Shown here: one piece after another, positions 7,070-34,442 of the stretch
Position numbering within the stretch: the stretch's first letter is position 1
Layout of the letters: every line of letters starts with the position of its first letter
From: Anaerolineae bacterium
Lineage (GTDB): Bacteria; Chloroflexota; Anaerolineae; Promineifilales; Promineifilaceae
Direction: 5' to 3'
DNA: 64,000 bases
NCBI GenBank assembly: GCA_030425205.1
Contig: JAUIAP010000035.1
Coordinates: 1-64,000, forward strand
Made by a program: the position numbers and the translations under genes
The notes under the pieces: model-generated
What the model was told of the DNA's origin: nothing
The model's input: only the letters and a program-made list of their open reading frames with translations
The model's database searches: none

Positions 7070-9250
7070 TTAGCCGAGCAAACTATCGACTTCAGCACCG
7101 TAAATACTGATTTCGAGCATGAAACCGTGTGCAACCCACAGCCCCTCTTGCGGGACACGCCGCACCTGACCCTCTTCTTGCGACCTTTCGAGCAACTGTT
7201 GTTTTATTTCAAGTAATCTTTGTAACATTTCAAAGATGTTGCTGTCGTCAAAATCCAATCGCTCAAGGGCGTCTCTCTCTAACTCAAGCATCAGATTTAA
7301 CCCAGTGCTGAGGTCGGTCACTGATTGACACAACGCTATCGCAACTGCATTTTCCACATCATTAGTATCGATCAAATCCAGAATCGCCTCTGGCTCGATA
7401 ACCGTGAAAGTTGCACACATGTCGTTTTCAGAAATTTCGTTGAGAAATGGTGTCCCTTTGATAATGAGGGGTAGTCGATTCTCGCGTGCGCTTCTGATCA
7501 AATCCGAGCGCACGATGTAAACGATCTCTTCCACACCAGCTACTCTGGAAAAAGTTTGTCGGTCAATCTGTATTTGACCATAAGGGACAGTAATAGGGTC
7601 GCCGCTTGCGTCGAAAATGCCCGCACCGATGATGGCATACGGCAGTTCAAGCGCACGCACGAAGTTGCCATCAATCGTGCGCGGTGACCACATACGCCCC
7701 TGTGACGTATTGACCCACTGTAAAACCTGTCCCGTTTGAGGCGTTGTTGTTGCTACGCGATTACCCTGAATACGCGCCACCGTTGGATTTGGATAGCTAC
7801 CGCTTAGGTCGCCGCCAGCGTCTCCCGTTGGGCTACCGCCGCCCGTTTCTGGCGGATCGACGGGTTGCCAACTTGTGCCGTTGAAGCCGAGAAGTTGGTC
7901 GGCTTGGGCGTTGGTGGTGTCTACGTCGCGCAGGTCGTTGAGTGCGAGGATTGTGTAGACGTAATAGGCACGTAGTTGGGTGTTGGTCTGGTCAATGTAG
8001 TCGAAATGTGGTGAACCACCTTGCGGATCGGCCGAATCCAACCCCTCCGCCAACGTCCCTCCACCCTCAACGTCGATCAGCGTCGTATCAAACGTAACCG
8101 TCACCTGTGCGCCATCCCGAATCTCGAACGGCAGCGAGTCGGTCAAAACCAGTTCAAACAGATTTGTATTCCCGATGCGATCAACGGCAACGGGTGGCGT
8201 GAACGACGAGCCGCCTTGCTCAATCGTCACCGTAACCGCCTCATTCGGAATTCGCAACAGGTCGGGGTGATGCACCCATGCACGCAGGTTGGGAACGTCC
8301 GTTTGGAACAGTGTCGCAAAAGTGCGCGACGGCACACCCTGTTTGCCGACCTTGCGCCCACAAATCAACCACTCTTGCAACAGGCGGCTGTGTAGGAGAA
8401 TCGACCGATCCCCCTCATCGACCACAACCCCCGTCGGCGGACTGTCTAATACCTCAGATCGCAACGTCGCCAGCAAAACACACGCCTCCTCTGGCTGACC
8501 CGTCGCGCAGCTTTGACTCTCTGGCAGCAACGTCGGCCGCACCTCCGTCACCCACACACGCATCATTGTGTCGAGCAGGTCGCACGCCTCATTTGGGTGT
8601 AGGAACAACGGGGATGCGTCGTCCGGTGGAGAGGCAGGCGGCGAAAGCAGATCGTCATCCATGCCGAGAGCGCGTACCAGCTCTAGCAATTCCTCTTCGC
8701 TAGCGTAGGTGGCCACGTCCGCGCTGACGGCGATTCGTGCGAGTAATCGGCCGAAACGCCCCACCGCTGCCTCTTCCAAATGCACGGGTGGCTCCAACGA
8801 GAACGACAGTTGGAAATCATCGACAATGCGCGACGGGATCATCGCCTCTTCCGCCGTGCGGCATGGCGCACCCGGCACGGGAACGATTCCCTGTGGGCAT
8901 TCGCGGGGACAAAGTGTGACGTAAATCGGCGGTATGTCGTCCCCCTCGACGTTTGCCGTGATCCATGCGTTCAGGTCGGCGCATTGGCTGGTCGGCACAC
9001 GCACCGTGATCCCCTGCGGCGTAACGGCGACACCGGCCGAAACGGTAACTTCCCCCTCCGCATAGCTCACCCGCAAACCGCACACCGTCCCGTAGCCGTG
9101 TAGAGCGCGGTTGTGCAGGTGATCACGGCTCATCATGTAATGTTGTTCCTGACGAAATTCATCGACCCCCAACACCAAACCGAGCGAGTAGTTGACGCGC
9201 GTGTTCGGATCGAGCGGGGTCGCGGTCGTTGCTGTGCGAAAATTAGACAT
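7070..9250 (-). CDS. eCIS tail-fibre-like protein (Afp13 position)
   Basis: A 726-residue protein. The N-terminal ~100 residues (motifs EFRQEQHYMMSRDHLHN, GYGTVCGLRVS, VSAGVAVTPQG) are homologous in pattern to the neighbouring 4240-7059 product. Near residue 478 is the motif GGDLSGSYPNPTVARIQGN, very common in phage tail-fibre shafts, followed by a receptor-binding-like C-terminal part. The ATG at 9250 overlaps the previous gene by 8 bp; in-frame codons upstream lie within that gene and are rejected. Its position between the gpI-like protein and the Afp14/15 genes corresponds to Afp13/Pvc13, which recognises target surfaces. The specificity cannot be read from the sequence. Confidence 0.75.
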   Translation of the reverse strand: MSNFRTATTATPLDPNTRVNYSLGLVLGVDEFRQEQHYMMSRDHLHNRALHGYGTVCGLRVSYAEGEVTVSAGVAVTPQGITVRVPTSQCADLNAWITANVEGDDIPPIYVTLCPRECPQGIVPVPGAPCRTAEEAMIPSRIVDDFQLSFSLEPPVHLEEAAVGRFGRLLARIAVSADVATYASEEELLELVRALGMDDDLLSPPASPPDDASPLFLHPNEACDLLDTMMRVWVTEVRPTLLPESQSCATGQPEEACVLLATLRSEVLDSPPTGVVVDEGDRSILLHSRLLQEWLICGRKVGKQGVPSRTFATLFQTDVPNLRAWVHHPDLLRIPNEAVTVTIEQGGSSFTPPVAVDRIGNTNLFELVLTDSLPFEIRDGAQVTVTFDTTLIDVEGGGTLAEGLDSADPQGGSPHFDYIDQTNTQLRAYYVYTILALNDLRDVDTTNAQADQLLGFNGTSWQPVDPPETGGGSPTGDAGGDLSGSYPNPTVARIQGNRVATTTPQTGQVLQWVNTSQGRMWSPRTIDGNFVRALELPYAIIGAGIFDASGDPITVPYGQIQIDRQTFSRVAGVEEIVYIVRSDLIRSARENRLPLIIKGTPFLNEISENDMCATFTVIEPEAILDLIDTNDVENAVAIALCQSVTDLSTGLNLMLELERDALERLDFDDSNIFEMLQRLLEIKQQLLERSQEEGQVRRVPQEGLWVAHGFMLEISIYGAEVDSLLG

Positions 9251-11567
9251 CTGGTTGATCTCCTGCGGCCGTGTCGCGGCCGACAACAAAGCGGTCAGCC
9301 ACATCAAACGGGTGGGCTGCACCGAGATAACTTTCTGCGAGAAACGCATCGCCGAGCATCAGCGCGGTGAAGCGGCTACCCTGTCCGAGCAGCGTATCGT
9401 AGCCGAGCCGAGCCGAGCCGATTTGGAATAACGCGAGGAACGACTTGACCTCAAAATTGGTGTGGGCAGGTTTGGCAATCGCAACGATGCGACTCACCAA
9501 GTCGAGCCGTTGGCGTGTCGCCACCGAATCCCCAACCGCCGCCACCGAGACGGCGAAGCGATGCGCCCCTTGCTCCTGAATGCGAACGGAGGCGTTGTCG
9601 GGGTCGGTCGTGAATAGTGTGTCGTCGGGGCAGTCGTCAATCGCCAAGCGTACCGTGCGAATCAACCCTTGTAGCGTGCCACGCTGTCGGAAGATCGTCA
9701 GCGCGTGGCGCATAAACAGCCGCCGCCGTGCGACATCCCACGCGGGATCGAGCGTCACGCCGATCCAACTCGCCAGCCACGGCAGGTATTCCGCATCCAG
9801 CGCGTTGACGTTGAACAACGCCTGCACTTGCGCGATGCGCTCCTCGATGTCGGTGTACTGCCCCTCAAAATTGGCGAGGAAACGGTCGAGAAAATCGGCC
9901 GAATCGACATCATACCGATACGCCGCCGGCAAATAGCGTATGAGATAGGAAAAGCGCGGGTAGTAGACGCGCAACGCACGCAGTCGCGGGGTGCGCCGCT
10001 GATTGCCGCGCAACGTCAGACGCAGTTGTAAATAGCGACCCTGCGCCGCCTGTAGGAGCAACTCCCAAGACTCCACACCGCTATCGTGATAGGCCAACTC
10101 CGACCCTTGCCGACGGCGATAGAGCGGCGGTTCATCCTGCCATTCGAGTAATGGCAATGCCTCACGACGGTTGCTGGCGCGGCTCTGCACGCTGATCGCC
10201 GTCTCTGGCGGAATCAGCGCGTCGATCAACAGACGATGCCAAACACAATCTGGCTCGCGTCCGTCAAACGCTGCGTTTTTCTCCAATAGGTGTCGCCAGC
10301 CATCTTTTGGTTCGCAATCGTCAAGCGACAGCTCTTCTTCGTCGAAATCAATCGGCAATTGCAATGTAGCAAGCGGACGATAGCGACAGCGCGGCTGCTT
10401 GACCAGTGGCAGCCAGCGTTCGCCCAAGTCGTAGTACACCTTGTCTGCGTGGGCGACGAGTGCCTTGCCGCTGTACCGTCGTAGTGGGAAATAATTTTGT
10501 GTTAGCTCAAACTGCTGGTCGTCGTCCGTCAGCGTTGCGGTGAGGCGGAATGCCTGATTGCCGTCTGTCGCCACGGCGAACAGATCGCCATTGAACGCGA
10601 TGTCGTGGGCGTGCAGATGGGCGGCGGCTGGATCGGCCGATTTCACTGCCTCATCCAACAAATCTTCCAGCAAATCCTCAAACGAAAACGGCTCACCGAT
10701 CAACTGACCGCCCCGCGTGCGGTAGAGGGTGGAGAAATCGGCCGAATTTTCCAACAACAACACACTGTTATCGGGTAGGGTTTCGACGGCAATCGGCCGA
10801 ATCCCTTCCAGCGGCGACCCCATCTCCAAGCGAATGCCCGTCGAAAAGCTCTGCGCCGCCGTGCCGCGTGGGATGTCTAATGGCGGTTTGGGCTGAAAAT
10901 CATCGGTCGTCTCAGCCGCCAATTCGATCACGTCATCGTGCGCCACGACGCAAAAATCCCGATCCAGCCGCCACAAGCGGCATGCTTGTGTCTCATCTGC
11001 TGGACGATCCAAAATCCACACGCCGTCATCTGTCGCCGCCGCCATGTCAAACGGCGCAAACGGCACAGGCCAGCGCAACGCAATCGGCCGACCCCCCGCG
11101 TGCAGGTCGAAAATCAGCAACCCCGCCGGCTCCACCACACCAACGACGAGGTAATGGTGTTGGGTAACAGTCAGGCCGCGTAATTGCAGCAGCGGGGGCG
11201 GTGTGGGGGGTGGCTGCGGCCGAAATTCCCCCGCAACATCGGTCGATTCCTTAACCTCATCATTGCTCGCCCAGTAGTGAACGGCCGACTGCGCCCCCGC
11301 GCTCAAAAAGCGCAACGACCGCTCATCGTCGCCGATCCAGTACCAGTTGCCATAGCGGTCACACGCCGCGCCGCGCCGCTGGTCAGGGGTCAGGCGTTCG
11401 GCCGCTTGCCCGCGCTGTGGAAAGCGAAAGACGAGCGGCTTGAGTGTCACTGTCTGCCCTTGCCAATCCAAAACGGGATCATCCAGCAGCCCATTGGCGG
11501 CACAAATAGCAGGTCGCCAATCGTTGGCTCCGAGCAGGTGGTGGAAGCGAGTTTGGTTGACGTTCAT
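9243..11567 (-). CDS. eCIS baseplate protein, gpI-like (Afp12/Pvc12 position)
   Basis: A 774-residue protein. The N-terminal ~430 residues have repeated beta-strand units with DRYGNWYWIGD and GVWILDRP motifs, like an NHL- or propeller-type domain. The C-terminal ~240 residues form a phage tail protein I-type domain (motifs FSYLIRYLPAAYR, DFLDRFLANFEG, LDAEYLPWLASWIGV). P2 gpI-type proteins form the outer baseplate wedge that carries fibres. The start is the ATG at 11567; a TTG immediately before it is rejected. A dispersed hairpin repeat separates it from the gpJ-like gene. A propeller fused to gpI is common in actinobacterial and chloroflexal eCIS. Confidence 0.85.
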   Translation of the reverse strand: MNVNQTRFHHLLGANDWRPAICAANGLLDDPVLDWQGQTVTLKPLVFRFPQRGQAAERLTPDQRRGAACDRYGNWYWIGDDERSLRFLSAGAQSAVHYWASNDEVKESTDVAGEFRPQPPPTPPPLLQLRGLTVTQHHYLVVGVVEPAGLLIFDLHAGGRPIALRWPVPFAPFDMAAATDDGVWILDRPADETQACRLWRLDRDFCVVAHDDVIELAAETTDDFQPKPPLDIPRGTAAQSFSTGIRLEMGSPLEGIRPIAVETLPDNSVLLLENSADFSTLYRTRGGQLIGEPFSFEDLLEDLLDEAVKSADPAAAHLHAHDIAFNGDLFAVATDGNQAFRLTATLTDDDQQFELTQNYFPLRRYSGKALVAHADKVYYDLGERWLPLVKQPRCRYRPLATLQLPIDFDEEELSLDDCEPKDGWRHLLEKNAAFDGREPDCVWHRLLIDALIPPETAISVQSRASNRREALPLLEWQDEPPLYRRRQGSELAYHDSGVESWELLLQAAQGRYLQLRLTLRGNQRRTPRLRALRVYYPRFSYLIRYLPAAYRYDVDSADFLDRFLANFEGQYTDIEERIAQVQALFNVNALDAEYLPWLASWIGVTLDPAWDVARRRLFMRHALTIFRQRGTLQGLIRTVRLAIDDCPDDTLFTTDPDNASVRIQEQGAHRFAVSVAAVGDSVATRQRLDLVSRIVAIAKPAHTNFEVKSFLALFQIGSARLGYDTLLGQGSRFTALMLGDAFLAESYLGAAHPFDVADRFVVGRDTAAGDQPDV

Positions 11568-11590
11568 CAAAATCCCTTACAATCTAAACG

Positions 11591-11628: not shown

Positions 11629-13821
11629 TCAGCAATCAAGCGGCACAACCGGCACAGCCACCGGTTGCAACACATCCTCATCGGCCGAAACTTGCCCCCG
11701 CAACGCCGCCAGCGGCATCGGCTGACCCGTCTGCACCGCGATTCCGCGCAGATAGGGCAGTTCAACTCCGTTCATCTCCACGCGGTCGGTGTGCGTCGTG
11801 TCTTCGGTCAGCAGCACGTCGTTGACCGTGCGAACCCCCGCGACCCGTGCAGCGACCGACCAGATTTCGAGTGCTTCGAGAGATTTTTCCAAAGGCCAGC
11901 CCGTCGCGTGTTGCAAATTGGGCAATGGTGATAAAAATTGAGCGATCTCACGCTCGACCACCTCGCGCACCGTCGCCAGCGACCCACCCGCCACCACATC
12001 GATTCCAATCGAGACCCAAATTGGCTTGTAGACTGCCCCGACGACATGCACCGTCGTCGTGATCAGGCGGCGCGGGTTGAGATATTGGCAAATCGTTTCC
12101 AAAAACAGGCGGTCGGGAACGGGGTTGCTCGGTTGCACGGGATCGTATTGCGGAATCGTCATCACTGTCACCGCGCCCTCGGCTGTTGCGTTCGTAGGCG
12201 GGGTTGGGTCAAACAGTGGCAACACCTCAACGCGCCCAATCGTCACGCCAGGCGTTTGCAAGGTGATGTGGCGAAAATCGTCGGCCGTTACCAGCCGTTC
12301 CGCGTGGCGAATTTGCTGCGGGATGCGCTGTTCGGCCGCCGCGACCGACTCCGCCTCATCGCCACCCCATGTCGGCAACGGATTGCTGACCTTGAGACCC
12401 GCGGGCAGTTGCGGCCCCTGCTTGATCGCGCCGATCCCGACGTTGCCCGCCTGTCCACCGCCGTAGTCATAGCTGGCGCGGATCGTCGTGTTGCGTGGAG
12501 GGCGTGCGCCGTGTGCGCCATCGCCAAAGCGCAGCAGCCCCGATTCACGATCCAGCGTGTAGACAAAAATCGGCAAATTGCCATCCGACAACTCCGCCCC
12601 CGCCACGATCAAATCGTCGATCTGCTGCCACACCACCCCATTGACGGTGATGCGTGCCGTGTCGGGCAGAATCGGCGTGTTGACGAGCGCGAATGTCTGA
12701 TTCGGTTCGCCGTTGCCCGTGCCGACTGGTTCATCGCTGACGCGCACGCGCTGTGTCACCTGCGCCGCGTTGATGCCCGCCCAGCTAATCCGCGCTTGCA
12801 GCTTGTGCGATTCATCCGTCTGCTGTCCGCTCTGAATGCGAATCCACGTGATCAGCCGCTCCTGCAAATCGGTCTCCTCCAACGAGGGTGGCAACGCGCC
12901 GACTCCGGCTTCGAGCGGGTCAAAATCCTGCCAGATGTGCAGTTGATCTTTGGATGGCAACGGAATCTGCACGATTCCCGGCTGTTGTAATAAGTTGCCG
13001 CTGCTCCGCACGTTGAGGGGTAAATACTGTACGTCGTTGACGATGTTGCCGAATGAATCGTAGGTGATACTCGGCCGCTTGAAGATCAGCGTGGGGAGGG
13101 TTTCGGCCGAATTGCCCGCCAACAGCACCTTGCCCACCTCCGTCAACGCCGGCATGATGCCGAGCGTCAACACCTTGCCCGCCAGTGCATCGCGCACGCT
13201 GTCCAAGAGGCGCACATCGCTTTCCCGCGCCAGCAACGCCAGCCAGAGACCATCGACGGTATCGGCCGAAAGGTCAACGACGGGAAAAACCGCACCCGAC
13301 GACGGTGGCTCTAACGGCTGCGTCTCGTAGAACATCAACGCTTGACCGTCCTGCAAATGGCTGGCGTAGAGTTGATTGTAGATCGCCTGAAAGTCGTCCT
13401 GTTGCGCGGAGTCTGTGATCGGTTTTTTGTAAAACAGCTTGCCCTCAATCGGCAGCACATCCAGCCCGTTCTCGCTGCGAAACGGCACTTTGCCGGCGAA
13501 AAGTGGCTGTCCACTCCCGACCGTCTCGGTGCGGATTTGCCCACGCGGATTTTGCAGCGTGACCATCCCCCGCGCCGCCGTCGCCGGTTGCAGTCCCATG
13601 CCAAGCAGCGACAAAAATTGCAGCCGATTGCGTTCAGGAATCAAATTGCTGCGATAGAGCAGGTTTTCCGTCATAAACGAAAATAGCTCAATCAGCGTCA
13701 CGCCTGGATCGCTGGCATTAAAATTCGTCCATTCAGGCGTGTGGACGGGAATCCGCGCCAGCGTCTCGGCACGCAGGGTGTCGTAGGTCAAATCATCGAG
13801 TTTCGGTACGATCATTGGCAT
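11629..13821 (-). CDS. eCIS baseplate J-like protein (Afp11/Pvc11)
   Basis: A 730-residue putative baseplate assembly protein of the gpJ/Afp11 family, which forms the wedge ring that triggers sheath contraction. The N-terminus starts with MPMIVPKLDDLTYD, followed by an IELFSFMTENLLYRSNLIPE segment typical of this family. The middle and C-terminus include FGDGAHGARPP and a gpJ-like TADDFRHITLQTPGV segment. The length fits the large eCIS version rather than the ~300-residue P2 gpJ. The start at 13821 lies 4 bp after the gp25-like stop. Assignment to the family is secure. The gene carries two TCGGCCGA copies at 13101 and 13260. Confidence 0.9.
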   Translation of the reverse strand: MPMIVPKLDDLTYDTLRAETLARIPVHTPEWTNFNASDPGVTLIELFSFMTENLLYRSNLIPERNRLQFLSLLGMGLQPATAARGMVTLQNPRGQIRTETVGSGQPLFAGKVPFRSENGLDVLPIEGKLFYKKPITDSAQQDDFQAIYNQLYASHLQDGQALMFYETQPLEPPSSGAVFPVVDLSADTVDGLWLALLARESDVRLLDSVRDALAGKVLTLGIMPALTEVGKVLLAGNSAETLPTLIFKRPSITYDSFGNIVNDVQYLPLNVRSSGNLLQQPGIVQIPLPSKDQLHIWQDFDPLEAGVGALPPSLEETDLQERLITWIRIQSGQQTDESHKLQARISWAGINAAQVTQRVRVSDEPVGTGNGEPNQTFALVNTPILPDTARITVNGVVWQQIDDLIVAGAELSDGNLPIFVYTLDRESGLLRFGDGAHGARPPRNTTIRASYDYGGGQAGNVGIGAIKQGPQLPAGLKVSNPLPTWGGDEAESVAAAEQRIPQQIRHAERLVTADDFRHITLQTPGVTIGRVEVLPLFDPTPPTNATAEGAVTVMTIPQYDPVQPSNPVPDRLFLETICQYLNPRRLITTTVHVVGAVYKPIWVSIGIDVVAGGSLATVREVVEREIAQFLSPLPNLQHATGWPLEKSLEALEIWSVAARVAGVRTVNDVLLTEDTTHTDRVEMNGVELPYLRGIAVQTGQPMPLAALRGQVSADEDVLQPVAVPVVPLDC

Positions 13822-13825
13822 AGCG

Positions 13826-14221
13826 TTACCCCGTCAACTGCACAGACAGCCCCAACCGTTCGAGAACGCTAGTTGCGATCAGGCGATAGGTCAGGGCGAC
13901 CGTGGCGCGTTGACGGTCTGTGTGATCGGCCGCGACAGTCACATCTTCCACGCTGATACGCGGCTCCCAACGGGCGAGTGCCTGTGTGATGCGTTCTTGA
14001 ATCAAGCGGTGCGTCGTCGGCGTGTTTGGTTCGTATAAAAATGCTTGCAAGCCGCCGCCAAATTCGGGCAGCATGAGCCGCTCGTTCATCTCCGTCAGCA
14101 AAATGACGCGGATCGACTCGCGGATATTGTCCGCCCCGACCGACCACGCAAGGCGACCATCCGCCCCGATGCGTGGGGGAAAGCTGATACTGCTGCCGAA
14201 AATTTGCGCGTCGTTCATCAT
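13826..14221 (-). CDS. gp25-like baseplate wedge protein (Afp9/Pvc9)
   Basis: A 131-residue GPW/gp25-family protein. Diagnostic features are SISFPPRIGADGRLAWS at the N-terminus, then IRESIRVILLTEMNERLML and PEFGGGLQAFLYEPN, and a LIQERITQALARWEPRI segment. In T4 and eCIS this subunit links baseplate to sheath. The start is the ATG at 14221, in an ATGATG doublet overlapping the previous stop by 4 bp. An in-frame codon at 14326 would add 35 residues read inside the upstream gene and is rejected. It is followed directly by the gpJ-like gene, without the PAAR (Afp10) gene that usually stands between them. Confidence 0.9.
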   Translation of the reverse strand: MMNDAQIFGSSISFPPRIGADGRLAWSVGADNIRESIRVILLTEMNERLMLPEFGGGLQAFLYEPNTPTTHRLIQERITQALARWEPRISVEDVTVAADHTDRQRATVALTYRLIATSVLERLGLSVQLTG

Positions 14222-15771
14222 GTCTCCGCTTTCAGATTTAGCGGGATGCAAATCTTGAAGAAAGGCAACCACCAAAAGACGATGTTGAGTAGCTGCACGA
14301 TTATCATGAGCAAAATCATGGCGCAAATGGTGATGATCGGGATGGAGAGCGAGCAGAGCATCCCCAAGTCGATGGTCTGCGCGGCATTGATGTCACCGCT
14401 GTCGAGATCACTGAGCGCGATATTTTGCACCCGCTCGATCTGCTTGCGAAGCTCGTCCGACAGCAGAAACGAGACGTTTTTCGGATATTTCCGCAAGCCG
14501 CTGATGCTCGTATCGACGGGCATCGTGATGCGAATCGGCCGAGCCGGGGCATCCGAATCGAAAAAGGAAGCCAACTGAAACGCCCGCGTCGGTTCACTGA
14601 CAATCGGCAACCCCTTGCAGCGCGGTCGCTCGTAGACGCAGCGCACGACGTACTCGGAGCCGGCACGCGGGTCGAGCTTGGGTGTCGGCGTGGTCGATGG
14701 CTGCTCTGTTTCATCTTCTTGCGGCAGCGCGGCCTCAACCAGCGTCACCAGCGTTCCCGCCGCCTCGCTCTCAGGAATCGGGATGTCCAAATCATTTATC
14801 ACGCCATTGATCTGCCCAGTAGACAACTTAAGTTCGGAGAGATCGTCGAAAAGGTCGTCGTAGTTGACAAGCCCCTCTTCAATTTCAGCTTCGTGCCTCC
14901 AAACCTGTTGGAGCAGCGACTTGCCCAAATTGGCGACGAGAAAGGCGTGCAGTGCCTCTCGGTCTTCATCGTCAAATTCGATAGGCTCGCCGTCACTCCT
15001 GCTGATCTCGCGGCGCACGTCCTTTAGGTGGACATTCAAGAACTGCATCAGGTCAAAGAGCGCAAAGGCAAACACCTCGCGGGCTTCGGCTGCGTCGTCC
15101 GGCATGTCGTCGCGCAACAGCGAGAGCGCGGTCACGACCTCTGTGCGAAAGCGCACCATGCGCGGCTCAGACAGCGGGTCGCCGTCGGGAGCCGCGACGA
15201 TTGGATCGAGGGAAGCGGTTGCCTGAAACGTCTCGCGGCTGGCGACGGGCACAAACCCCGCCAACAAGCGACGCGGCTGTCCCTTCTGCTCAAACCCCAT
15301 GCCAAACAGCGGCAACTGCTCCTCGCCCTCACAAATTTGCCCACACACCGCGACCGACTGCCAGCCGACAGCGGGAATCCATGCGTACTCCTGCTCATCA
15401 ATCAGGCGGCGCAACACGAACGTCGTGCGCTCATCTGATGCGACGCGCTTATCGGGCAGACCCGGCACGCGGCAAACGAGGCTGGCGGCGATCAGGTAGA
15501 ATCGCTGTTGGGTTGGTTGGTAGAGCTTGAGCGCGGCGTTACTCACCGCACTTTCCCATCCCGCAGCCTCTTCTCGCCAATTTTCTGGGCGGGCGACGAA
15601 ATTTTGTAGCTGATTTGGCCGATCTGCCAACACCCCCTGCAACTCCTCCATAAACGCATCCGTTTTGAAGCGCAAGATCGACGGCTGCCGAAAGCGCTTG
15701 CGCGTCTCGTCTTGCAGAGCGACCGACCAGAGGGGGGCGGCGGTGTGCCATGCGGGTGTGTGTGTTCGCAT
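14218..15771 (-). CDS. eCIS-associated protein with C-terminal membrane hairpin
   Basis: A 517-residue protein between the gpV-like spike gene and the gp25-like gene. The N-terminal ~450 residues look soluble, with a VVRCVYERPRC segment near 400. The last ~50 residues contain a long hydrophobic stretch (about 470-508: SIPIITICAMILLMIIVQLL, then NIVFWWLPFFKICIPL) able to cross the membrane once or as a hairpin. Similar tails occur, as far as I recall, in a conserved protein of intracellular CIS of Streptomyces and cyanobacteria, where membrane tethering of the particle has been reported. Identity with those anchors is inferred. The start is the ATG at 15771 in a TGATG overlap; a GTG one codon earlier is the alternative. 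Confidence 0.7.
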   Translation of the reverse strand: MRTHTPAWHTAAPLWSVALQDETRKRFRQPSILRFKTDAFMEELQGVLADRPNQLQNFVARPENWREEAAGWESAVSNAALKLYQPTQQRFYLIAASLVCRVPGLPDKRVASDERTTFVLRRLIDEQEYAWIPAVGWQSVAVCGQICEGEEQLPLFGMGFEQKGQPRRLLAGFVPVASRETFQATASLDPIVAAPDGDPLSEPRMVRFRTEVVTALSLLRDDMPDDAAEAREVFAFALFDLMQFLNVHLKDVRREISRSDGEPIEFDDEDREALHAFLVANLGKSLLQQVWRHEAEIEEGLVNYDDLFDDLSELKLSTGQINGVINDLDIPIPESEAAGTLVTLVEAALPQEDETEQPSTTPTPKLDPRAGSEYVVRCVYERPRCKGLPIVSEPTRAFQLASFFDSDAPARPIRITMPVDTSISGLRKYPKNVSFLLSDELRKQIERVQNIALSDLDSGDINAAQTIDLGMLCSLSIPIITICAMILLMIIVQLLNIVFWWLPFFKICIPLNLKAET

Positions 15772-16481
15772 CACCAGATATTCCCCGCGCCCGGCGTATA
15801 GCTCGCGCTCACAACCGAGTTCGTAATCACCGTGTCTGCCTGTACGACCCCACTGAACTTCGACATCCCCGCGTTGACCGTCACCATCCCCGCGCTGACT
15901 TCAACAGTGGAAGCGTTGATCGTCACCTTCGCGGAGGCGTTGACCGTGATACCGCTCGCTTCGAGCTTGACGGAGTTGCCGCCGCTGTCGCGCAGTTCGA
16001 TCAGGGTTGCGCCGTCTTGTAACGTCACCGTTTGACCGCCGGGCGTTTTGAGCGTCAGGGTCTCCTGTCCGCTACTGTCGTCGAGCGTGATTTCAATGCC
16101 AGAACGGGAGCGCAGTTGCTTGATGTTGTTGCCGCTCTGCATCGACTGGGGCGGTGCGTCTTGCCCGTTCCACAACATGCCGACGACGTAGGGATGGCGC
16201 ACATCCCCCGCCTCAAAACAGATCAGCACCTCGTCATCGACATCGGGGATAAACCACGATCCGCGCTCGTTGCCAGCCATCATCGTTGCCAGCCGCGCCC
16301 ACGCTTCGTAGGCGGTTCCCGCGCTGTCGGGCGACCATGGCAGGCGAATGCGAACGCGCCCCTGTCCGTCGGGGTCGTCATTGTCGCTGACGATGGCGGT
16401 GTACACGCCGTAGAAGCGACCACCAAAACCGTAGGGGACGCGCTGGGCGAAAAGGGTGTCGAGTGCTGTTGCGATCATCAT
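15771..16481 (-). CDS. gpV/gp5-like spike protein (Afp8 C-terminal half)
   Basis: A 236-residue baseplate assembly protein V. Residues about 20-110 are the OB-fold typical of gpV/VgrG (GVYTAIVSDNDDPDGQGRVR, LPWSPDS, SWFIPDVDDEVLICFEAGD, PYVVGMLWNG). From about 150 a beta-helix spike follows with short repeating strands (GITVNASAKVTINAS, VEVSAGMVTVNAGM). With the gpD-like gene just upstream it corresponds to a split VgrG/Afp8. It probably forms the trimeric central spike. No separate PAAR tip is encoded in the window. The start overlaps the gpD-like stop by 4 bp (ATGA). Confidence 0.9.
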   Translation of the reverse strand: MMIATALDTLFAQRVPYGFGGRFYGVYTAIVSDNDDPDGQGRVRIRLPWSPDSAGTAYEAWARLATMMAGNERGSWFIPDVDDEVLICFEAGDVRHPYVVGMLWNGQDAPPQSMQSGNNIKQLRSRSGIEITLDDSSGQETLTLKTPGGQTVTLQDGATLIELRDSGGNSVKLEASGITVNASAKVTINASTVEVSAGMVTVNAGMSKFSGVVQADTVITNSVVSASYTPGAGNIW

Positions 16482-17548
16482 CGGCCGATTCCCATTCTCT
16501 CTACTTGAAAGTTCGTTTTGAAGCCGTCCGCGCCGTTGAAGGTGTGGCGCACTTCGCAGACGTAGTACTCGCCGTTGAACAGTGCGCCGATCCCGTCGAG
16601 TGTGACGTGTGTGCCGACGCGCAGATGGGCGTTGCCCTCGGCGATGGCTGACCCCGTCACAAAGCGGCGTGCCAGCGTGCGATAGTGCGCGTCGGCGAGT
16701 GATTGCGCCTCGTTGCGCGTGAACGGCGCGAGGTGGACGATCTGTTCGGCGCGGTCACCAAGCGCCTGTTGCAAGACGGCGCGACCACTTTGCAAGCCGT
16801 TGAGTTCGGATTGCAGGGCGGATTCGGCCGATTCCGCCGTAATCGCCTCTTTCCCCGCCACATCCCATCCGCTGACGGAAAGCGTCGTGCGCTGATGAGC
16901 GAGATCGGCCAACACCGAAAATTCGTGCAGCTTACGCCCGTAGGTCAGCGTCAAACGGTTGCTGTTGCGCTTGGCGCGACTCTGCACGAACAGCTTGTCG
17001 TCTGCAAACCACAGTTCTGCGTCAATCGCCCGCGCCCGTTCGCGCAAAAAGGCGAGATCACTCTGGTTCAACTGCGCCAGCACGCGATAGGTCGGCCCCT
17101 CGACATCCGTTTCGATCTGCAAGCTGTGTTGCGCCGCGATTTGCTGAAAAACGTCGTCGTCGCTGACATCTTCAAAGGTGCGTGTGCGGCGCGTCATGCG
17201 CAAATCTTGAAAGCGATCTTCGAGTAGCAGCGTCAATTCAGGCGGTCGCTGGCGCGGAAAAGCGGCTTCGATCCCCATGATGCGCCCCGCGAAGATCGTC
17301 GCCTTGGCCGCTCCCACGCCCATCGACACGCTGACCAACTTGCCAAAATCGAGCAGGTCGCGGTCAAAGTAGAGGAAGTCGGATGACTCACCCGTGCTGC
17401 CCCAATTGCCAAGCGTCATCTCGCAGCGATACAGCCCCTCCGTCGTCTCGCAGACGAGCAGGGAGGTGATGCCGCTACTCAGGTTAGGCTCCTCGCGGCC
17501 GTCCAGCGTCAGGGATGGGCGCGAGGGGAAGAAGGCGTTGTGATCCAT
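16478..17548 (-). CDS. gpD-like hub protein (phage protein D, Afp8 N-terminal half)
   Basis: A 356-residue phage late control gene D-family protein, the tube-like hub of the spike (gp27 type). It shows NAFFPSRPSLTLDGREEPNL at the start, VSVSMGVGAAKATIFAGRIM, a DLRMTRRTRTFEDVSDDDVF segment and SLADAHYRTLARRFVTGSAI near the end. The ATG at 17548 is chosen, two bases after the stop of a small gene read in another frame. The longer ORF running to 17743 would wholly overlap that small gene and has no family-like N-terminus. It forms a split VgrG with the next gene. Confidence 0.88.
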   Translation of the reverse strand: MDHNAFFPSRPSLTLDGREEPNLSSGITSLLVCETTEGLYRCEMTLGNWGSTGESSDFLYFDRDLLDFGKLVSVSMGVGAAKATIFAGRIMGIEAAFPRQRPPELTLLLEDRFQDLRMTRRTRTFEDVSDDDVFQQIAAQHSLQIETDVEGPTYRVLAQLNQSDLAFLRERARAIDAELWFADDKLFVQSRAKRNSNRLTLTYGRKLHEFSVLADLAHQRTTLSVSGWDVAGKEAITAESAESALQSELNGLQSGRAVLQQALGDRAEQIVHLAPFTRNEAQSLADAHYRTLARRFVTGSAIAEGNAHLRVGTHVTLDGIGALFNGEYYVCEVRHTFNGADGFKTNFQVERMGIGR

Positions 17549-17550
17549 TT

Positions 17551-17724
17551 TCAGTGCGCTTGTACTCGCTGATGGCGCAAATGCTGCCAGCGGCGAATGT
17601 GCTGTATCTTCTGTGGTGTGAGCGTGGGTTGTGGGGGTGGGGATTGGGTTTCGGCCGAGTCCCCGCTCACCGCCGGTTGCGGCGGCTCCACGACAACCTC
17701 GAAATCGTTGATAATGACACTCAT
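17551..17724 (-). CDS. Small eCIS protein, 57 residues
   Basis: A short ORF between the LysM and gpD-like genes. Its ATG at 17724 overlaps the preceding stop by 4 bp (ATGA) and its TGA lies 2 bp before the next ATG, so it fits the operon exactly. The product begins MSVIINDFEVVVEPPQP, has a Pro/Ser-rich middle and ends in a basic helix (IQHIRRWQHLRHQRVQAH). I recall small ORFs of this type (acidic DFEVV-EPP start, proline linker, basic end) at the same place in actinobacterial eCIS clusters. The function is unknown; an assembly or linker role is possible. It is too short for usual gene-calling cut-offs. Confidence 0.75.
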   Translation of the reverse strand: MSVIINDFEVVVEPPQPAVSGDSAETQSPPPQPTLTPQKIQHIRRWQHLRHQRVQAH

Positions 17725-18548
17725 AAATCGATCCTTGCCGCACCGCCTAATCCGACGGAGACGCTGGCATCAAAGGTGACGGCGGTAGCGAGATTGGGCG
17801 CGCTGGCGTTCAAAGATACGCCACCTGCTCCAAACGACGCGCCGCCTGAAATGGAAGCTCCTGCTGAGAGCGACGCACCCGCATTTAGGTCAACGAGCGT
17901 GCCGGGCGCAAGCAAACGCGGATTCTCGATGTTGTTGGCGGCGGCAATATTTTTCCAATCTTTGCCTTGTCCCGATTCGGCCGCCATTTGCTGCACCGAT
18001 TGATTGTCCTTTGCGGCGTTGAGGGGTGACTCACCGGCATTGCCACCACTGCCCCCCGCACCAAATTGAAATTGAATCGTCTGGCTCGATAAACTGATCG
18101 AAACAGCGGCACGCAATGGCACGCCGTCTTCCGAAAAGTACTCCAATGTTTCGTTCATCGAGTCCATAATGCCGTCGAATAAAAATGTTCCCCAGATAAA
18201 GCGCACGCCTGGCGGAATCCATTTCTGCCTGTCGGACGTGGGTTCGGGCTTGATAAAGTAGTTGACTTTCTCCGTCAGTTTGCGAACGTCGGTGATCGCC
18301 TCGTCGCCGGGCAGCGGCGCGGTGACATCGAAAATCAGGTCGAGCGAGAGCTTTGTCGTCCCCGCTCCGACAAACTGAATCGCTGAGCCGCCGCGTTGGT
18401 CGCCGCCCGAACTCTGGTTGGCAAAGGCCACCTTGAGCGTTTCGGGGTTGAACTGCACGACGATGGTTTTGTCTTTTTTGATCTCCTGCGCTTGCTGGCT
18501 GTCGTTCCATTTGATTTGGCGCAGTTCGGCTTTGACGAGTTTACTCAT
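17721..18548 (-). CDS. LysM-type baseplate/tube-initiator protein (Afp7/Pvc7-like)
   Basis: A 275-residue protein. The N-terminal ~165 residues (VKAELRQIKW, IVVQFNPETLKVAFANQ, KLTEKVNYFIKPEP, VRFIWGTFLFDGIMDSMNET) form the CIS tube-adaptor domain. A degenerate LysM follows at about 185-225 (MAAESGQGKDWKNIAAANNI, LLAPGTLVDL). The C-terminal ~50 residues are a Gly/Ala/Ser-rich tail of amyloid- or linker-like composition (SAGASISGGASFGAGG). In eCIS this family connects tube and spike and resembles T4 gp53. The start at 18548 overlaps the tube 2 stop by one base (TAATG). The low-complexity tail is longer than I would expect. Confidence 0.85.
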   Translation of the reverse strand: MSKLVKAELRQIKWNDSQQAQEIKKDKTIVVQFNPETLKVAFANQSSGGDQRGGSAIQFVGAGTTKLSLDLIFDVTAPLPGDEAITDVRKLTEKVNYFIKPEPTSDRQKWIPPGVRFIWGTFLFDGIMDSMNETLEYFSEDGVPLRAAVSISLSSQTIQFQFGAGGSGGNAGESPLNAAKDNQSVQQMAAESGQGKDWKNIAAANNIENPRLLAPGTLVDLNAGASLSAGASISGGASFGAGGVSLNASAPNLATAVTFDASVSVGLGGAARIDL

Positions 18549-19066
18549 TAGGCAGCCCTCTTGAGACGCAGCGATTCGTAGGCCAGCGTCAGTTCTTCGA
18601 TGGCGACGAACCCATCTTTGGCATTGAGCGACGGGGCTTTGAGCTTCGTTGGCAGACAGCCGACCAGTTCAAATTCGGCGTTGACCGTCTGCTGATCGGC
18701 ACTGTAGAGGACGACCAGCCCGGTTGCGCGGAGTCCCTGTTGTGTCGGCCGACCCAGATGCTCAAACCATTTCCACAAATCGAAATTCCTCGTCATGCCA
18801 CGCTTGAGGGCGAGTTGTCCATAGCTGATCGGGCCAAGCAGATGGATGTGACGGGCGTTGTTGCCACCCTCGCGGATCGACTTTGGTTCATGCGTCATTT
18901 CCAACCCATCGCACTCGGCAAAGGCGGCACTGCACAGCGGTCGGCCGTTTTTCGGATCGCTGTGATCGGTGCGCTCTCCCTCCAACGCATCGACGTATAG
19001 CTCAATGCGAAAGTTGAACGCGCTAAAGGGAGGGGCTATCGCCTCACGGTCGAGAAAATTACTCAT
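18548..19066 (-). CDS. Tail tube protein 2 (Afp5-like)
   Basis: A 172-residue T4 gp19-type tube protein. Motifs include PPFSAFNFRIELYVD at the start, CSAAFAECDGLEMTHEPKSI, LALKRGMTRNFDLWKWFEHL and AIEELTLAYESL at the end. It is paralogous to the tube protein at 22110-22562 and probably forms the baseplate-proximal tube ring, as Afp5 does. Its ATG overlaps the sheath 2 stop by 4 bp. Confidence 0.88.
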   Translation of the reverse strand: MSNFLDREAIAPPFSAFNFRIELYVDALEGERTDHSDPKNGRPLCSAAFAECDGLEMTHEPKSIREGGNNARHIHLLGPISYGQLALKRGMTRNFDLWKWFEHLGRPTQQGLRATGLVVLYSADQQTVNAEFELVGCLPTKLKAPSLNAKDGFVAIEELTLAYESLRLKRAA

Positions 19067-21858
19067 ACGACCTCCAATCCCTCATGCTGGACGAGGCGTA
19101 GCGTGAGAAAGGCGAGTGGATGGCTGGGCGCGACGCGCAGTTCGATGATCAGTTGACCGCGCTCGGTTGCGCTGCGCGTGTTGAGCGTCTCGTCGATGAC
19201 AACGCGGTACGCCTGATCGGGGGTGGCGCCCGCGAACGCGCCACGCCCGTAGAGATCAGCGAGAAACAGCTCAAATTTATGACGGATCAGACGGCGCAGT
19301 TCGGTGCTGTGTGCGCCAAAGACGTATTTGTTGCCTTCGCGCAGCGCGAGACGACGCAGCAAGATGAAGAGGCGGCGGACGTTGATCGGCCGAAAATCCC
19401 CATCCCGACTCAACGTTTCCGCGCTCAACAGCATGAAACCGCGTGGGTCTTGGCGCACGACATTGATCTGCGCGGCGAAAAGGGTCGCCCATTCGCTGCG
19501 TGTCGTTGTCGGCGTGAGCGCGACGACGGTGTTGAGCGGCTCGTTGGCTGGCGCGATCCACGCCCCGTGCGTGAGAGCGCGGCTGGCAAATTGTCCACAA
19601 ATCGCGCCCGTCGGCGGGATCGTCTGACCGCGCTGTGTCGTTAGCCACGTGTGATAGAGTGCGCCGTAACTGAGCAGATCGCGTGCGCTTTCCCACTGGA
19701 CGCGGCTGATCAACTGTTCAGCGTGTGCAGTGGCAGCGGCGGCGCGGTAGTGGGCAGGCAACGCGAGGAGGGCGAACAGATCGCCACGTGCGACACAGAG
19801 GCGCAGCAAGGCATGTTGCAGCGTCAAAAGCGTTGTGTCGTCGTATTGCGGGTTGCGTTCCCAGCGCGTCGTGACGGGATGCTGATCGGGGTAGCGCACG
19901 GTGTTTGACCACACGCCGATCTGATCGCCAAAGTGGGCGCGGACGCGATAGTAGTGGACATCGGCCGAAATCCGCCCCACCCGCACCTGCAACAGATCGA
20001 CTTCACTCGTCGTGTGGACGGTTGTAAAAAGGGGATCGGCCGATCCTTGCCATTCGTATTTTGTCGCGCCGTCAACGGCCGACCACTGTAAACTCAGTTC
20101 GTCAGCGACGAGTCGTTCTAATTCGGTCGCCACATTCAGCGCAAAGCCACACACGTCAAACGAATCGTGCGGAATCTCCACGCCAATGGTGTTTGACCAC
20201 GCGCTCGTCTCGCTGCCAAAGGTGGCACGGACGCGCCAATACGTCCACGTTGGGCAATCGCCATCAATCGGTAACGCGACCGCCGTCGCCTCTCCCGCGT
20301 AGCGTTGGCGCGGTTGGGCAAAGGTCGGCTCCGTTGCCGATTCAAGCAGATAGCCCGTCGCGCTTACAACGGCCGACCAGCGCACGTCGACCATTTCGCT
20401 CACCGCGACGCTTTCCAAAACAGGCGGGTCGAGAATCGCCATCACGGGCTGTTCGACCGCACGCCATGCATGCTGAATCGCGTCGGGAATGGTGATCAGC
20501 GTCACCTCTGTGAGCGGCAAAACGGTGTGCAAGCCCGTCAGCCGCGCACCGCGCACGTACTGTTTATCGTGCGCTTCGGCCAGCAAAAGCTGGCTGCGCG
20601 TGGTGGCGAGATGCGGGTCTAGGAAGAGATCGGCCGAAAACACCCCCAACCCATCCCACACAAGCGCATCGTCCCCTACGTCCGCCCCCGCCGTGATCGT
20701 GAAACGCGACTCCATACCAAACGGCAATGTCAACGCGCTAAAGTCGCCAGCCAACGGAAAGCGCGGCTCATCGGCGAGGGAGTCCAGCAGCGTCAACTTG
20801 CGCGGTGCGTCACCGATCCGCAAGTCGAACAGGTCGTCGTCACTGGGTAAGTTGCCCCAGAAGCGTGGATGGTCGGGCGCGCAGGCGAGATCGGTCAGTT
20901 GGGCGATGATCTGCTGTTCGCGCCAAACCGCCAAGTCGAAACGTAAACGGGTGACGATAGGCGTTTCAGTTGGTGGGATCACGTTGCCATTGACGATTTG
21001 CAGCCCTGTGCCACGCACAATCCATTCCTCTTCGGGTGGGGAGTCGGCGGTAAGCGTTGGTTCAACTTCCGCGATGGAGAGGAGCAGCGTCGCGTCGTTA
21101 TCCAGTCGCACGCGCACGATTGCGCCGCGTTGTGGGAGGTGTGGGGTTGGTATGATGGTTAGCGCGACTTGATCGCCGTCTTTGACTATGCGAAGGGGTG
21201 CAAGGGGATGATGGGGGTGGATTTCGGCCGAAACAACCCCCATCCCATCCTCAAACCGTCTAAACCAATGCGGCTGGCTGAGTTCCAACATCAACCCATC
21301 GATCCGTGTGACAACTGCGTAGAGTAGCAGCCCTGCCTCTGGAAAGTCGAGTTTGAGCAAGTCGTGTTGCGTGACAAACGGGGCGACGGTGGGGAGATGC
21401 AGCGTCATATCATTCAGCGCAAGCGCGGGGAAAATGTCGTTGCGGAGGCGTGTGCCGACCCGCAAGTCGTCCGCCCAACTGCCGGGTGAGCGGGCGGGGG
21501 TTGTGAGGGGGGTATGGGTTTCGGCCGATAGCAAATGCGGCAATCCAAAGCGCGTCGTCTGCCCCTCTTGCGCCACGCGCACAACCCAACAACGACGACC
21601 CCCATTGGCAAAAAACGCCTCAACCGCTACACCGAGATAGCCGTGTTGCTGCTGTCCCGTCGCCTCATCCCACGCCAGCGCAACGTCCGCGCCGAAGATG
21701 TCACGGAAGCGCGTCACATCCTCCACCGCGACGGGAATGTTGACGGGGCCAGACGCGGCAAAGCCGACAAACGCGGCGATGTCCATGCGTGGCAACGTCT
21801 CCGGCAGCGGCGGCGGGACGGTTTGGAAGGTTAGGCCGGGGAGGGTGTTGGTTAGCAT
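19063..21858 (-). CDS. Tail sheath protein 2 with FnIII-like insert domains
   Basis: A 931-residue second sheath. The N-terminus (LPGLTFQTVPPPLPETLPRM, IAAFVGFAASGPVNIPV, EAFFANGGRRCWVVRVAQ) and C-terminus (SRDGDFRPINVRRLFILLRR, then LALREGNKYVFGAHSTEL) are sheath-like. Between them are about 300 extra residues with two fibronectin-III-like units (DVRWSAVVSATGYLLES, TYWRVRATFGSETSAWSNTI; LSLQWSAVDGATKYEWQ, YYRVRAHFGDQIGVWSNTV). Normal sheaths are 350-620 residues. The inserts would sit on the outside of the particle. The ATG at 21858 is used because the codons upstream lie in a MITE-derived gap. It may be a minor or baseplate-proximal sheath, as Afp4 is. Confidence 0.85.
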   Translation of the reverse strand: MLTNTLPGLTFQTVPPPLPETLPRMDIAAFVGFAASGPVNIPVAVEDVTRFRDIFGADVALAWDEATGQQQHGYLGVAVEAFFANGGRRCWVVRVAQEGQTTRFGLPHLLSAETHTPLTTPARSPGSWADDLRVGTRLRNDIFPALALNDMTLHLPTVAPFVTQHDLLKLDFPEAGLLLYAVVTRIDGLMLELSQPHWFRRFEDGMGVVSAEIHPHHPLAPLRIVKDGDQVALTIIPTPHLPQRGAIVRVRLDNDATLLLSIAEVEPTLTADSPPEEEWIVRGTGLQIVNGNVIPPTETPIVTRLRFDLAVWREQQIIAQLTDLACAPDHPRFWGNLPSDDDLFDLRIGDAPRKLTLLDSLADEPRFPLAGDFSALTLPFGMESRFTITAGADVGDDALVWDGLGVFSADLFLDPHLATTRSQLLLAEAHDKQYVRGARLTGLHTVLPLTEVTLITIPDAIQHAWRAVEQPVMAILDPPVLESVAVSEMVDVRWSAVVSATGYLLESATEPTFAQPRQRYAGEATAVALPIDGDCPTWTYWRVRATFGSETSAWSNTIGVEIPHDSFDVCGFALNVATELERLVADELSLQWSAVDGATKYEWQGSADPLFTTVHTTSEVDLLQVRVGRISADVHYYRVRAHFGDQIGVWSNTVRYPDQHPVTTRWERNPQYDDTTLLTLQHALLRLCVARGDLFALLALPAHYRAAAATAHAEQLISRVQWESARDLLSYGALYHTWLTTQRGQTIPPTGAICGQFASRALTHGAWIAPANEPLNTVVALTPTTTRSEWATLFAAQINVVRQDPRGFMLLSAETLSRDGDFRPINVRRLFILLRRLALREGNKYVFGAHSTELRRLIRHKFELFLADLYGRGAFAGATPDQAYRVVIDETLNTRSATERGQLIIELRVAPSHPLAFLTLRLVQHEGLEVV

Positions 21859-21876
21859 CTTTGCTGACTCATAAAC

Positions 21877-22099
21877 GTAAAACGTAATTTCTCTGATCAG
21901 ACGCATTACTTCGTACAACGTCAAAATGTGCGTCGTTTGCGTAAAAAGTTGTGACACAGAGGCTCACGGAGGAGGCACAGAGGCTCACAGAGTTTTTCTC
22001 CTTTCTTCTCTCTGTGAATCTCAGTGTGTCCTCCGTGCAACTCTGTGTTACTTTTTGGTTGTGGCTTCGCCACTTTACGTTTTACGCATTACGTTTTAC
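21877..22099. mobile_element. 223-bp MITE-like palindromic element between tube 1 and sheath 2
   Basis: Perfect 12-bp terminal inverted repeats, GTAAAACGTAAT at 21877-21888 and ATTACGTTTTAC at 22088-22099, bound a segment without an ORF. Inside is an imperfect inverted repeat built from CACAGAG and CACGGAGGA blocks (about 21953-22000 against 22003-22055), so the whole element could fold into a long hairpin. It occupies almost all of the only large gap inside the eCIS structural genes. It is probably a non-autonomous element. Its sequence type (ACACAGAG/CACGGAGG runs) is seen as a repeat in many bacterial genomes. Confidence 0.7.
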
Positions 22100-22109
22100 C
22101 GACAAGACG

Positions 22110-22562
22110 TTAGGCGAGTTCGATGCGTTCACACGATAGGACGAGCTCCTCAATAGCGAGGTCGTTGCCTTTGCCGTTGAGCGAGGGGCCGGTGTATTTC
22201 ATCGGCCGAGCCTCCATCAATTTCCATGTGAGAACGGTACCCGTGTGGGCTTCGTCTTGCAGTTCGATGGTGACGGTGCGGCGTGCATCTTGCGAGCCGT
22301 TGCGGATTTGATCGAGCCATTGGTAGAGGTCGAGCGCACCGAGAACGCCGCGTTTGAGCGTTACGTCGGGGACTTTGTATGTACCAGTCACCTTGAGCGG
22401 CGCATTGTCGCGGAAGTTGCCAGCGCGATACTCAGCGACGTTGATCTCCATGCCGAGACCGCTGACCTCTTGAAAACCAGCGGTCACACCTTGCGCGTTG
22501 AGACCGTCCCAACTGACGAGGAAGTTAAATTGGCTGTAGGGTCTTTCCCGAAATTCTGCCAT
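22110..22562 (-). CDS. Tail tube protein 1 (Afp1/Pvc1-like, gp19 family)
   Basis: A 150-residue main tube protein. It has the family pattern: RPYSQFNFLVSWDGLNAQGV, FQEVSGLGMEINVAEYRAG, VPDVTLKRGVLGALDLYQWL and the C-terminal AIEELVLSCERIEL. It forms the inner conduit of the particle. The start at 22562 is 63 bp after the sheath 1 stop. It is followed by a MITE that separates it from the second sheath/tube pair. The size and motifs fit the family well. Confidence 0.92.
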   Translation of the reverse strand: MAEFRERPYSQFNFLVSWDGLNAQGVTAGFQEVSGLGMEINVAEYRAGNFRDNAPLKVTGTYKVPDVTLKRGVLGALDLYQWLDQIRNGSQDARRTVTIELQDEAHTGTVLTWKLMEARPMKYTGPSLNGKGNDLAIEELVLSCERIELA

Positions 22563-22625
22563 GATTGTTTCTCCGATTAGTTTGTTATCTGCTCAGAACA
22601 GACTAAAGTCCGTTCCACATGGGTG

Positions 22626-31030: not shown

Positions 31031-31044
31031 TGGGCGGATGATTC

Positions 31045-31905: not shown

Positions 31906-31917
31906 GGGTTGGTCTCC

Positions 31918-34344: not shown

Positions 34345-34402
34345 TTATTCCTCTTCTTCTATTGAGATTAGCTCACAAACTTGTAAGTTCGCAGGGCATA
34401 AA

Positions 34403-34416
34403 GGCGTGTGAACGCC
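34403..34416 (-). terminator. Weak hairpin in the lipoprotein-subtilase gap
   Basis: On the minus strand GGCGT-TCAC-ACGCC forms a 5-bp stem with a 4-nt loop followed by TTTA. It lies in the 98-bp gap between the lipoprotein and subtilase genes. It is short, so at most partial termination or mRNA-end protection. Confidence 0.25.
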
Positions 34417-34442
34417 CCACTCTAGCTCTAAAAATTGTAGAG

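What the first reader, a model, noticed from the sequence alone, without database searches (positions are those of the whole stretch)
14218..15771. Baseplate-region protein with a C-terminal membrane hairpin
About 40 hydrophobic residues end an otherwise soluble 517-residue protein in the middle of the baseplate genes. This could hold the particle at the cytoplasmic membrane, as reported for intracellular CIS in Streptomyces and thylakoid-bound CIS in cyanobacteria. It would argue for a cell-associated and not a freely released weapon.
Basis: partly seen in the sequence, partly recalled or inferred. Interest (0 to 1): 0.6.

Follow-up and report, generated by a model that had tools for sequence, protein, structure and literature searches.

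The report
Greasy-tailed spike partner replacing PAAR
A bacterial phage-tail-like injection machine carries an undescribed, widely conserved protein with a very hydrophobic end, whose gene sits where related machines encode the cap of their piercing spike, so it is more likely a membrane-entering spike tip than a simple anchor.

Summary
On the minus strand a 517-residue protein ("X", 15771-14218) ends in about 40 hydrophobic residues (469-508), the only clearly membrane-capable stretch in the injection-system (CIS) cluster. There is room for one membrane helix. A hairpin is not shown, although two flanking cysteines are kept or lost together.

X is an unnamed conserved family with no Pfam, NCBIfam, PHROGs or PDB relative. 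All 30 X-first loci, from seven named bacterial phyla, have it between spike (gpV) and gp25. Four X-less CIS encode a PAAR or PAAR-like spike cap in that interval. No X locus held a PAAR gene.

Every visible spike beside X ends in Y[TS]PGAGN[IV]W, and none of eight X-less spikes does. A blind DNA search for that tail found X next door in every testable case (21 of 21 viral-collection contigs and 4 of 4 genome hits).

Best reading: X is a dedicated spike partner, probably a tip replacing PAAR, whose greasy helix enters a membrane. That it binds the spike tail, and which membrane it enters and when, are inferred. It is not CisA and not the thylakoid Cis13 anchor. "Cell-associated, not released" cannot be concluded. 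It is a new variant of a known kind.

The parts
14218..15771 (-). gene X: 517-residue conserved CIS protein of unnamed family (subject of the finding)
   Evidence: no Pfam/NCBIfam/PHROGs/PADLOC match; no PDB sequence match better than E 0.1
14248..14367 (-). hydrophobic stretch, residues 469-508, one membrane-length helix; motif C-x2-S-I-P-I-I-T-x-C-A ... F-W-W ... K-I-C-x-P
15771..16481 (-). gpV/gp5-like spike (OB domain plus beta-helix), partner of X
   Evidence: PF04717 E 7.8e-27; PDB matches to CIS and T6SS spikes
15774..15800 (-). spike C-terminal peptide YTPGAGNIW, strictly coupled to the presence of X
13826..14221 (-). gp25-like baseplate wedge protein; its ATG overlaps the X stop codon
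   Evidence: PF04965 E 9.6e-23; overlap read
16478..17743 (-). hub protein (gpD/gp27-like); this ORF is probably over-long at its N-terminus
   Evidence: PF05954
17551..17724 (-). small ORF MSVIINDFEV..., likely separate hub plug (Cis6/Alg6 position), so X is not the plug
   Evidence: function by position only
11629..13821 (-). gpJ-like baseplate protein
   Evidence: TIGR02243 E 3.3e-77
9243..11570 (-). gpI/Cis12-like baseplate protein
   Evidence: PF09684, TIGR02242, NF053768
17721..18548 (-). CIS tube / tube initiator protein (Cis7-like)
   Evidence: PF19266 E 4e-25
18548..24482 (-). inner tube proteins (18548-19066, 22110-22562) and sheaths (19063-21957, 22626-24482)
25315..25902 (-). cap protein (Pvc16 N-terminal domain)
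   Evidence: PF14065 E 5.3e-27

Best explanation
X is a dedicated partner of the spike, most likely the tip cap of the particle in place of the usual PAAR protein. It probably docks on the three C-terminal peptides (YTPGAGN[IV]W) of the trimeric spike and carries a conserved, very hydrophobic helix. The helix would be kept packed against other chains or other parts of the tip and would enter a lipid bilayer when the tip touches or is driven into a membrane, easing passage of the spike and tube. Shown here: the family, the strict position, the two-way coupling to the spike tail, the absence of PAAR in X clusters, and the conserved hydrophobic stretch. Inferred: physical binding to the spike tail, tip location, stoichiometry, and membrane entry on firing rather than before it.
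For: Position: 30 of 30 X-first loci have spike-X-gp25. Stop/start codons of spike, X and gp25 overlap in the window. In four X-less plasmid CIS a PAAR (PF05488, three cases) or a DUF2169 gene with a PAAR-like domain (one case) fills the same interval. A PAAR profile finds none in any X locus or the window. The window's whole genome has no PF05488 or PF13665 match. Coupling: 28 of 28 visible spikes of X-first loci plus the window end in Y[TS]PGAGN[IV]W, and none of 8 X-less spikes does. Blind search with the tail's DNA pattern: 4 of 400 genomes of the phylum, all with X adjacent and none for the reversed control pattern; 22 viral-collection contigs, X adjacent in all 21 testable. Three of those contigs and two of those genomes were already known, leaving 20 new cases of 20. 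The tail is 95% conserved against 64% for the spike body (the pattern-found spikes inflate this somewhat). Known CIS spikes in the PDB align only to about residue 191-220 of 236. Helix: sequence, not just greasiness, is conserved (0.68 mean top-residue frequency at 476-500, the highest in the protein). This suggests specific packing rather than a plain anchor.
Against: No structure or binding data. No PAAR-like fold or motif in X, and no structural relative in the PDB or viral model libraries. X is about 5 times larger than a PAAR cap, which would be bulky at a tip. In AFP the PAAR gene (afp10) lies after gp25 (own knowledge), so the slot argument is not universal, and three X-less clusters have no PAAR in the slot while one has an unrelated hydrophobic protein there. 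Strict coupling could also arise if X binds the spike tail only during assembly.
Confidence: 0.55

Rival explanations
1. X is a tail-anchored membrane protein that holds the loaded particle at the producer's own cytoplasmic membrane by gripping the spike or baseplate from below.
For: Topology fits a tail-anchored protein: folded soluble N-terminus, one hydrophobic helix, about 9 residues after it. It is the only strongly membrane-capable protein of the CIS cluster. Cell-attached CIS with membrane proteins are known.
Against: Not related to CisA, Cis13 or the haloarchaeal anchor by architecture or position. The hydrophobic stretch is more conserved in sequence than the soluble domains, unusual for a plain anchor, and carries charged Asp-Arg/His pairs at 496/500 in 9 of 48 relatives. 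It sits in the PAAR slot with a coupled spike tail rather than a coupled wedge.
Confidence: 0.25
2. X is an effector or pore-former that rides on the spike and is left in the target membrane, like T6SS spike-tip effectors with transmembrane domains or tape-measure-related CIS effectors.
For: Spike-tip effectors with membrane helices exist (prePAAR effectors, PMC7773334). Membrane-hairpin CIS effectors exist (Sle1, PMC13277306). Some relatives carry an extra C-terminal domain.
Against: One copy in a fixed core position in every cluster, no toxin domain, no variable C-terminus in most members, and no second locus in the window's own genome. Effectors usually vary; X does not.
Confidence: 0.08
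3. X is an internal or assembly part (hub plug, cage around the spike, or spike chaperone), the hydrophobic helix forming a trimer core inside the particle and never meeting a membrane.
For: High sequence conservation and an i,i+4 covarying pair (N-W / D-R at 496/500) look like protein packing. CIS spikes can have a trimeric plug with a hydrophobic core (Alg6, PMC8894135). Tip chaperones of the DUF2169 type are known (PMC11883445).
Against: A separate small plug-like gene exists in the window and in X clusters. The helix is more hydrophobic than needed for a coiled core, with no charged residue in 31 of 48 sequences.
Confidence: 0.12

Closest known systems
PAAR / PAAR-like (PIPY, DUF4150) spike caps of T6SS and eCIS
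   Same: Gene position next to the spike; one dedicated partner per spike type; four X-less CIS have one in the same interval
   Different: X has no PAAR match, is 517 residues against about 100, and bears a hydrophobic helix
CisA (SCO4242) of Streptomyces CIS
   Same: CIS-cluster protein with one membrane-length helix
   Different: CisA has a disordered N-terminus, a conserved C-terminal domain after the helix, lies downstream of the baseplate genes and is absent from purified particles (PMC12237407); X has a folded N-terminus and a different position
Cis13/Cis12 of the thylakoid-anchored CIS (Anabaena)
   Same: C-terminal membrane helix on a particle protein (Cis13)
   Different: Cis13 is a tail-fibre-like trimer; X has no sequence match to the solved tCIS proteins and lies at the spike, not the rim (PMC8894136)
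T6SS prePAAR effectors with transmembrane domains (Eag clients)
   Same: Idea of a spike tip bearing membrane helices that help cross a membrane (PMC7773334)
   Different: X has no PAAR, no toxin domain, a C-terminal rather than N-terminal helix, and no Eag-like gene was looked for or noticed
Alg6 hub plug of AlgoCIS
   Same: Hydrophobic helix associated with the spike complex (PMC8894135)
   Different: A separate small plug-like gene is present beside X

Membership tests
Contractile injection system (host cluster) | Sheath, tube, hub, spike, gp25, gpJ, gpI, cap and AAA ATPase genes in one cluster | tested here: met
CisA | Disordered N-terminus, one membrane helix, conserved C-terminal domain after it | tested here: not met
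   AF2 folds the N-terminus (pLDDT mostly 80-96); in the window only 9 residues follow the helix
[quoted passage not shown]
   X is between spike and gp25 in 30 of 30 loci
CisA | Sequence homology to CisA | not tested
   the CisA sequence was not at hand
tCIS Cis13 anchor | Tail-fibre-like protein homologous to solved Cis13 (PDB 7B5H) | tested here: not met
   no PDB sequence match; no fold match at E <= 0.001
PAAR / PAAR-like cap | PF05488 or PF13665 domain | tested here: not met
   no Pfam match for X or relatives
PAAR / PAAR-like cap | Gene in the spike-gp25 interval of CIS | tested here: met
PAAR / PAAR-like cap | Binds the blunt end of the trimeric spike | not testable with these tools
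   no complex prediction offered; coupling to the spike tail is indirect evidence
prePAAR transmembrane effectors | prePAAR/PAAR motif and C-terminal toxin domain | tested here: not met
   no family match
Integral membrane protein | At least one stretch of about 19 residues favourable for insertion | tested here: met
Membrane hairpin | Two membrane helices joined by a short turn | tested here: inconclusive
   too short for two full helices; one helix in AF2, broken helix in a relative; Cys473/Cys508 co-loss favours close ends
T6SS TssL (tail-anchored) | Helical cytoplasmic domain and C-terminal membrane helix, homologous to TssL | tested here: not met
   the general shape is similar, but no PDB sequence or fold match to any TssL was listed

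The most novel reading that the evidence does not exclude
A widespread branch of contractile injection systems has replaced the PAAR spike cap with a large membrane-inserting tip protein clamped on a conserved nine-residue spike tail: a previously undescribed kind of piercing tip that uses a lipid-entering helix.
Probability: 0.45. Interest if true: 0.75.

Novelty: new variant of a known kind. Interest (0 to 1): 0.55.

Why it matters
How CIS spikes cross membranes, and what decides whether a CIS is released or used inside its maker, are open questions. A core protein with a lipid-entering helix, tied by sequence to the spike's last nine residues, gives a direct handle: delete the tail, the helix or the gene and ask whether particles assemble, dock, fire or penetrate. 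The Y[TS]PGAGN[IV]W tail is also a simple DNA tag that finds this CIS branch in raw sequence.

Tried and rejected
1) Homology of X to anything solved or named: no match in Pfam, NCBIfam, PHROGs, PADLOC, the PDB by sequence, or phages; fold searches gave only scattered weak matches with TM-score near 0.1, not interpreted.
2) Classical two-helix hairpin: rejected as stated, because the second half is unfavourable for insertion; a short re-entrant fold is not excluded.
3) X as hub plug: unlikely, since a separate plug-like ORF exists.
4) Spike-X gene fusions as proof of contact: looked for, none.
5) Trp500 as an invariant residue: an artefact of the search pattern; in the pattern-free set it is Arg, Trp, Phe or His. 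Cys473, Ser476, Pro478 and Ala484 were not in that pattern.

Full report
WHAT IS THERE. The finding's coordinates are read on the minus strand: ATG at 15771, stop TGA at 14220-14218, 517 residues. I call the protein X. Its last 50 residues hold one long hydrophobic stretch, 469-508 (LGMLCSLSIPIITICAMILLMIIVQLLNIVFWWLPFFKIC). Its best 19-residue Kyte-Doolittle mean is 2.8, while no other protein of the CIS cluster exceeds 1.83. With the Hessa scale quoted from memory it is the only stretch in the cluster with a favourable value, and only one such helix fits. Chance from composition alone reaches this in 52 of 20,000 shuffles. Conservation across 48 distinct relatives removes doubt.

THE SETTING. 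In transcription order the cluster reads: cap, sheath, tube, second sheath, second tube, Cis7-like tube protein, small plug-like ORF, hub, spike, X, gp25, gpJ, gpI, then three unknown proteins and an AAA ATPase. Spike stop, X start and stop, and gp25 start overlap, so X is read as a core part of the baseplate/spike block. The host is probably a Chloroflexota bacterium of the Anaerolineae (inference: relatives placed in the same class by the genome search coincide with Ardenticatena and Caldilineales contigs).

THE FAMILY. X matches no Pfam, NCBIfam, PHROGs or PADLOC family and no PDB chain. Relatives were found in 26 genome contigs, three viral-collection contigs and one Rhodococcus plasmid. 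Named phyla are Chloroflexota, Rhodothermota, Myxococcota, Gemmatimonadota, Poribacteria, Actinomycetota and Pseudomonadota. All 30 loci have X immediately between spike and gp25 where both are on the contig. The hydrophobic stretch is present in all with the motif C-x2-S-I-P-I-I-T-x-C-A...F-W-W-x-P...K-I-C-x-P or close variants. In six relatives (Rhodococcus, Actinoplanes, Kribbella, an Acidimicrobiia bacterium, two viral-collection contigs) a soluble extension of about 110-120 residues follows.

THE SPIKE TAIL. All 28 visible spikes of X-first loci, and the window's, end exactly in Y[TS]PGAGN[IV]W; eight spikes of X-less plasmid CIS do not. I tested this blind: the DNA pattern of the tail plus stop was searched without reference to X. 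In 400 genomes of the phylum it hit four, with no hit for the reversed control; all four have X next to the spike, two of them new. In the viral collection it hit 22 contigs; X follows the spike in 21, and the remaining contig ends 191 bases after the spike. Three of the 22 were already known. In the new, pattern-free X proteins whose end is held the hydrophobic stretch is again always present (maximum KD at least 2.35). Spikes of known structure align only to about residue 191-220 of the window's 236-residue spike, so the tail is a feature of this branch.

THE SLOT. In X-less CIS the spike-gp25 interval holds a PAAR gene in Streptomyces sp. NBC_01324, Rhodococcus sp. WB1 and Haloferax larsenii, and DUF2169 plus a PAAR-like domain in Cereibacter. 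In Roseomonas it holds an unnamed, also hydrophobic protein, and in three others nothing. No PAAR was found in any X locus or the window. The window's genome has no PF05488 or PF13665 match anywhere. Some other X-bearing genomes do have such genes; the one checked by coordinates on the same contig (Roseithermus) lies millions of bases from the CIS, and most others lie at positions or contig numbers that do not fit the CIS contig. Published work places a single PAAR-like protein at the spike tip in AlgoCIS (PMC8894135). X therefore most likely takes the cap's place.

SHAPE. AlphaFold2 with 29 sequences folds most of the N-terminal 350 residues well (mostly above 80) but domain packing is uncertain (pTM 0.52); the tail is one helix, 469-508, about 89 in its core and lower at both ends. 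For the Kribbella relative the helix is shorter and broken. No structural relative was found. Cys473 and Cys508 at the two ends are both present in 45 and both absent in 3 sequences, never singly, and the three lie in separate parts of the tree. That suggests they work as a pair, which a straight single helix does not explain; a folded-back or inter-chain arrangement would. Positions 496/500 covary as N-W or D-R/H, as in a packed helix. Because sequence is conserved most in this stretch, it probably makes specific contacts and is not merely greasy.

HOW IT MOST LIKELY WORKS. Shown: conserved family, fixed place, strict coupling to a spike tail, PAAR absent, conserved lipid-compatible stretch. 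Inferred: X sits on the spike tip through the nine-residue tails and its helix enters a bilayer, most simply on firing, helping the tip through a membrane. The main rival is that X docks the loaded particle to the producer's own membrane before firing; both can be true of one protein.

RELATION TO KNOWN SYSTEMS. It is not CisA (different architecture and position) and not Cis13 or Cis12 of the thylakoid CIS; neither is it the six-helix haloarchaeal candidate. It works most like a PAAR cap combined with the membrane-helix idea of prePAAR T6SS effectors, but it belongs to neither family. I found no paper describing it in the open-access library searched; papers outside that library were not seen.

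LIMITS. The genome set was drawn with a pattern containing W-W and C, so those residues are biased there; the blind set corrects this. Counts of loci are not independent events (nine are Myxococcaceae). No complex prediction or experiment was possible.

Noticed in passing
27320-44023 (minus strand): Upstream of the CIS genes and on the same strand lies a run with a CHAT-TPR protein, a subtilase, two caspase-like (C14) proteins, Hsp70 and GrpE: a possible cell-death or protease module linked to the CIS.
   Followed up: no
44261-51798 (plus strand): Two large divergent STAND-type regulators (NB-ARC/TPR; BTAD-NACHT-TPR) next to that run.
   Followed up: no
17551-17724 (minus strand): Small unlisted ORF MSVIINDFEV..., conserved in L015, L016, L032 and L041 between Cis7-like and hub genes; likely the hub plug. 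It overlaps the N-terminus of the 421-residue hub ORF, whose true start is probably further downstream.
   Followed up: partly
L049:7845-8603: Roseomonas plasmid CIS has an unrelated 252-residue hydrophobic protein (max KD 2.2) in the spike-gp25 interval, perhaps another hydrophobic tip solution.
   Followed up: no
L014, L037, L038, L039, L075, L078: Relatives with a 110-120-residue extension after the hydrophobic stretch; those whose end was displayed (L014, L037-L039) finish in a conserved [RS][DS]QV[IV]HP-like end (RDQVIHP, RDQVVHP, RSQVIHP); function unknown.
   Followed up: partly
L057-L078: 22 contigs of the viral collection carry this CIS; they are probably CIS clusters mis-called as viruses.
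   Followed up: no
51768-59024 (minus strand): 2418-residue protein with FG-GAP repeats and laminin-G/concanavalin-like domains, possibly an adhesin.
   Followed up: no
59245-59832 (plus strand): Resolvase-type recombinase near the right end of the window.
   Followed up: no
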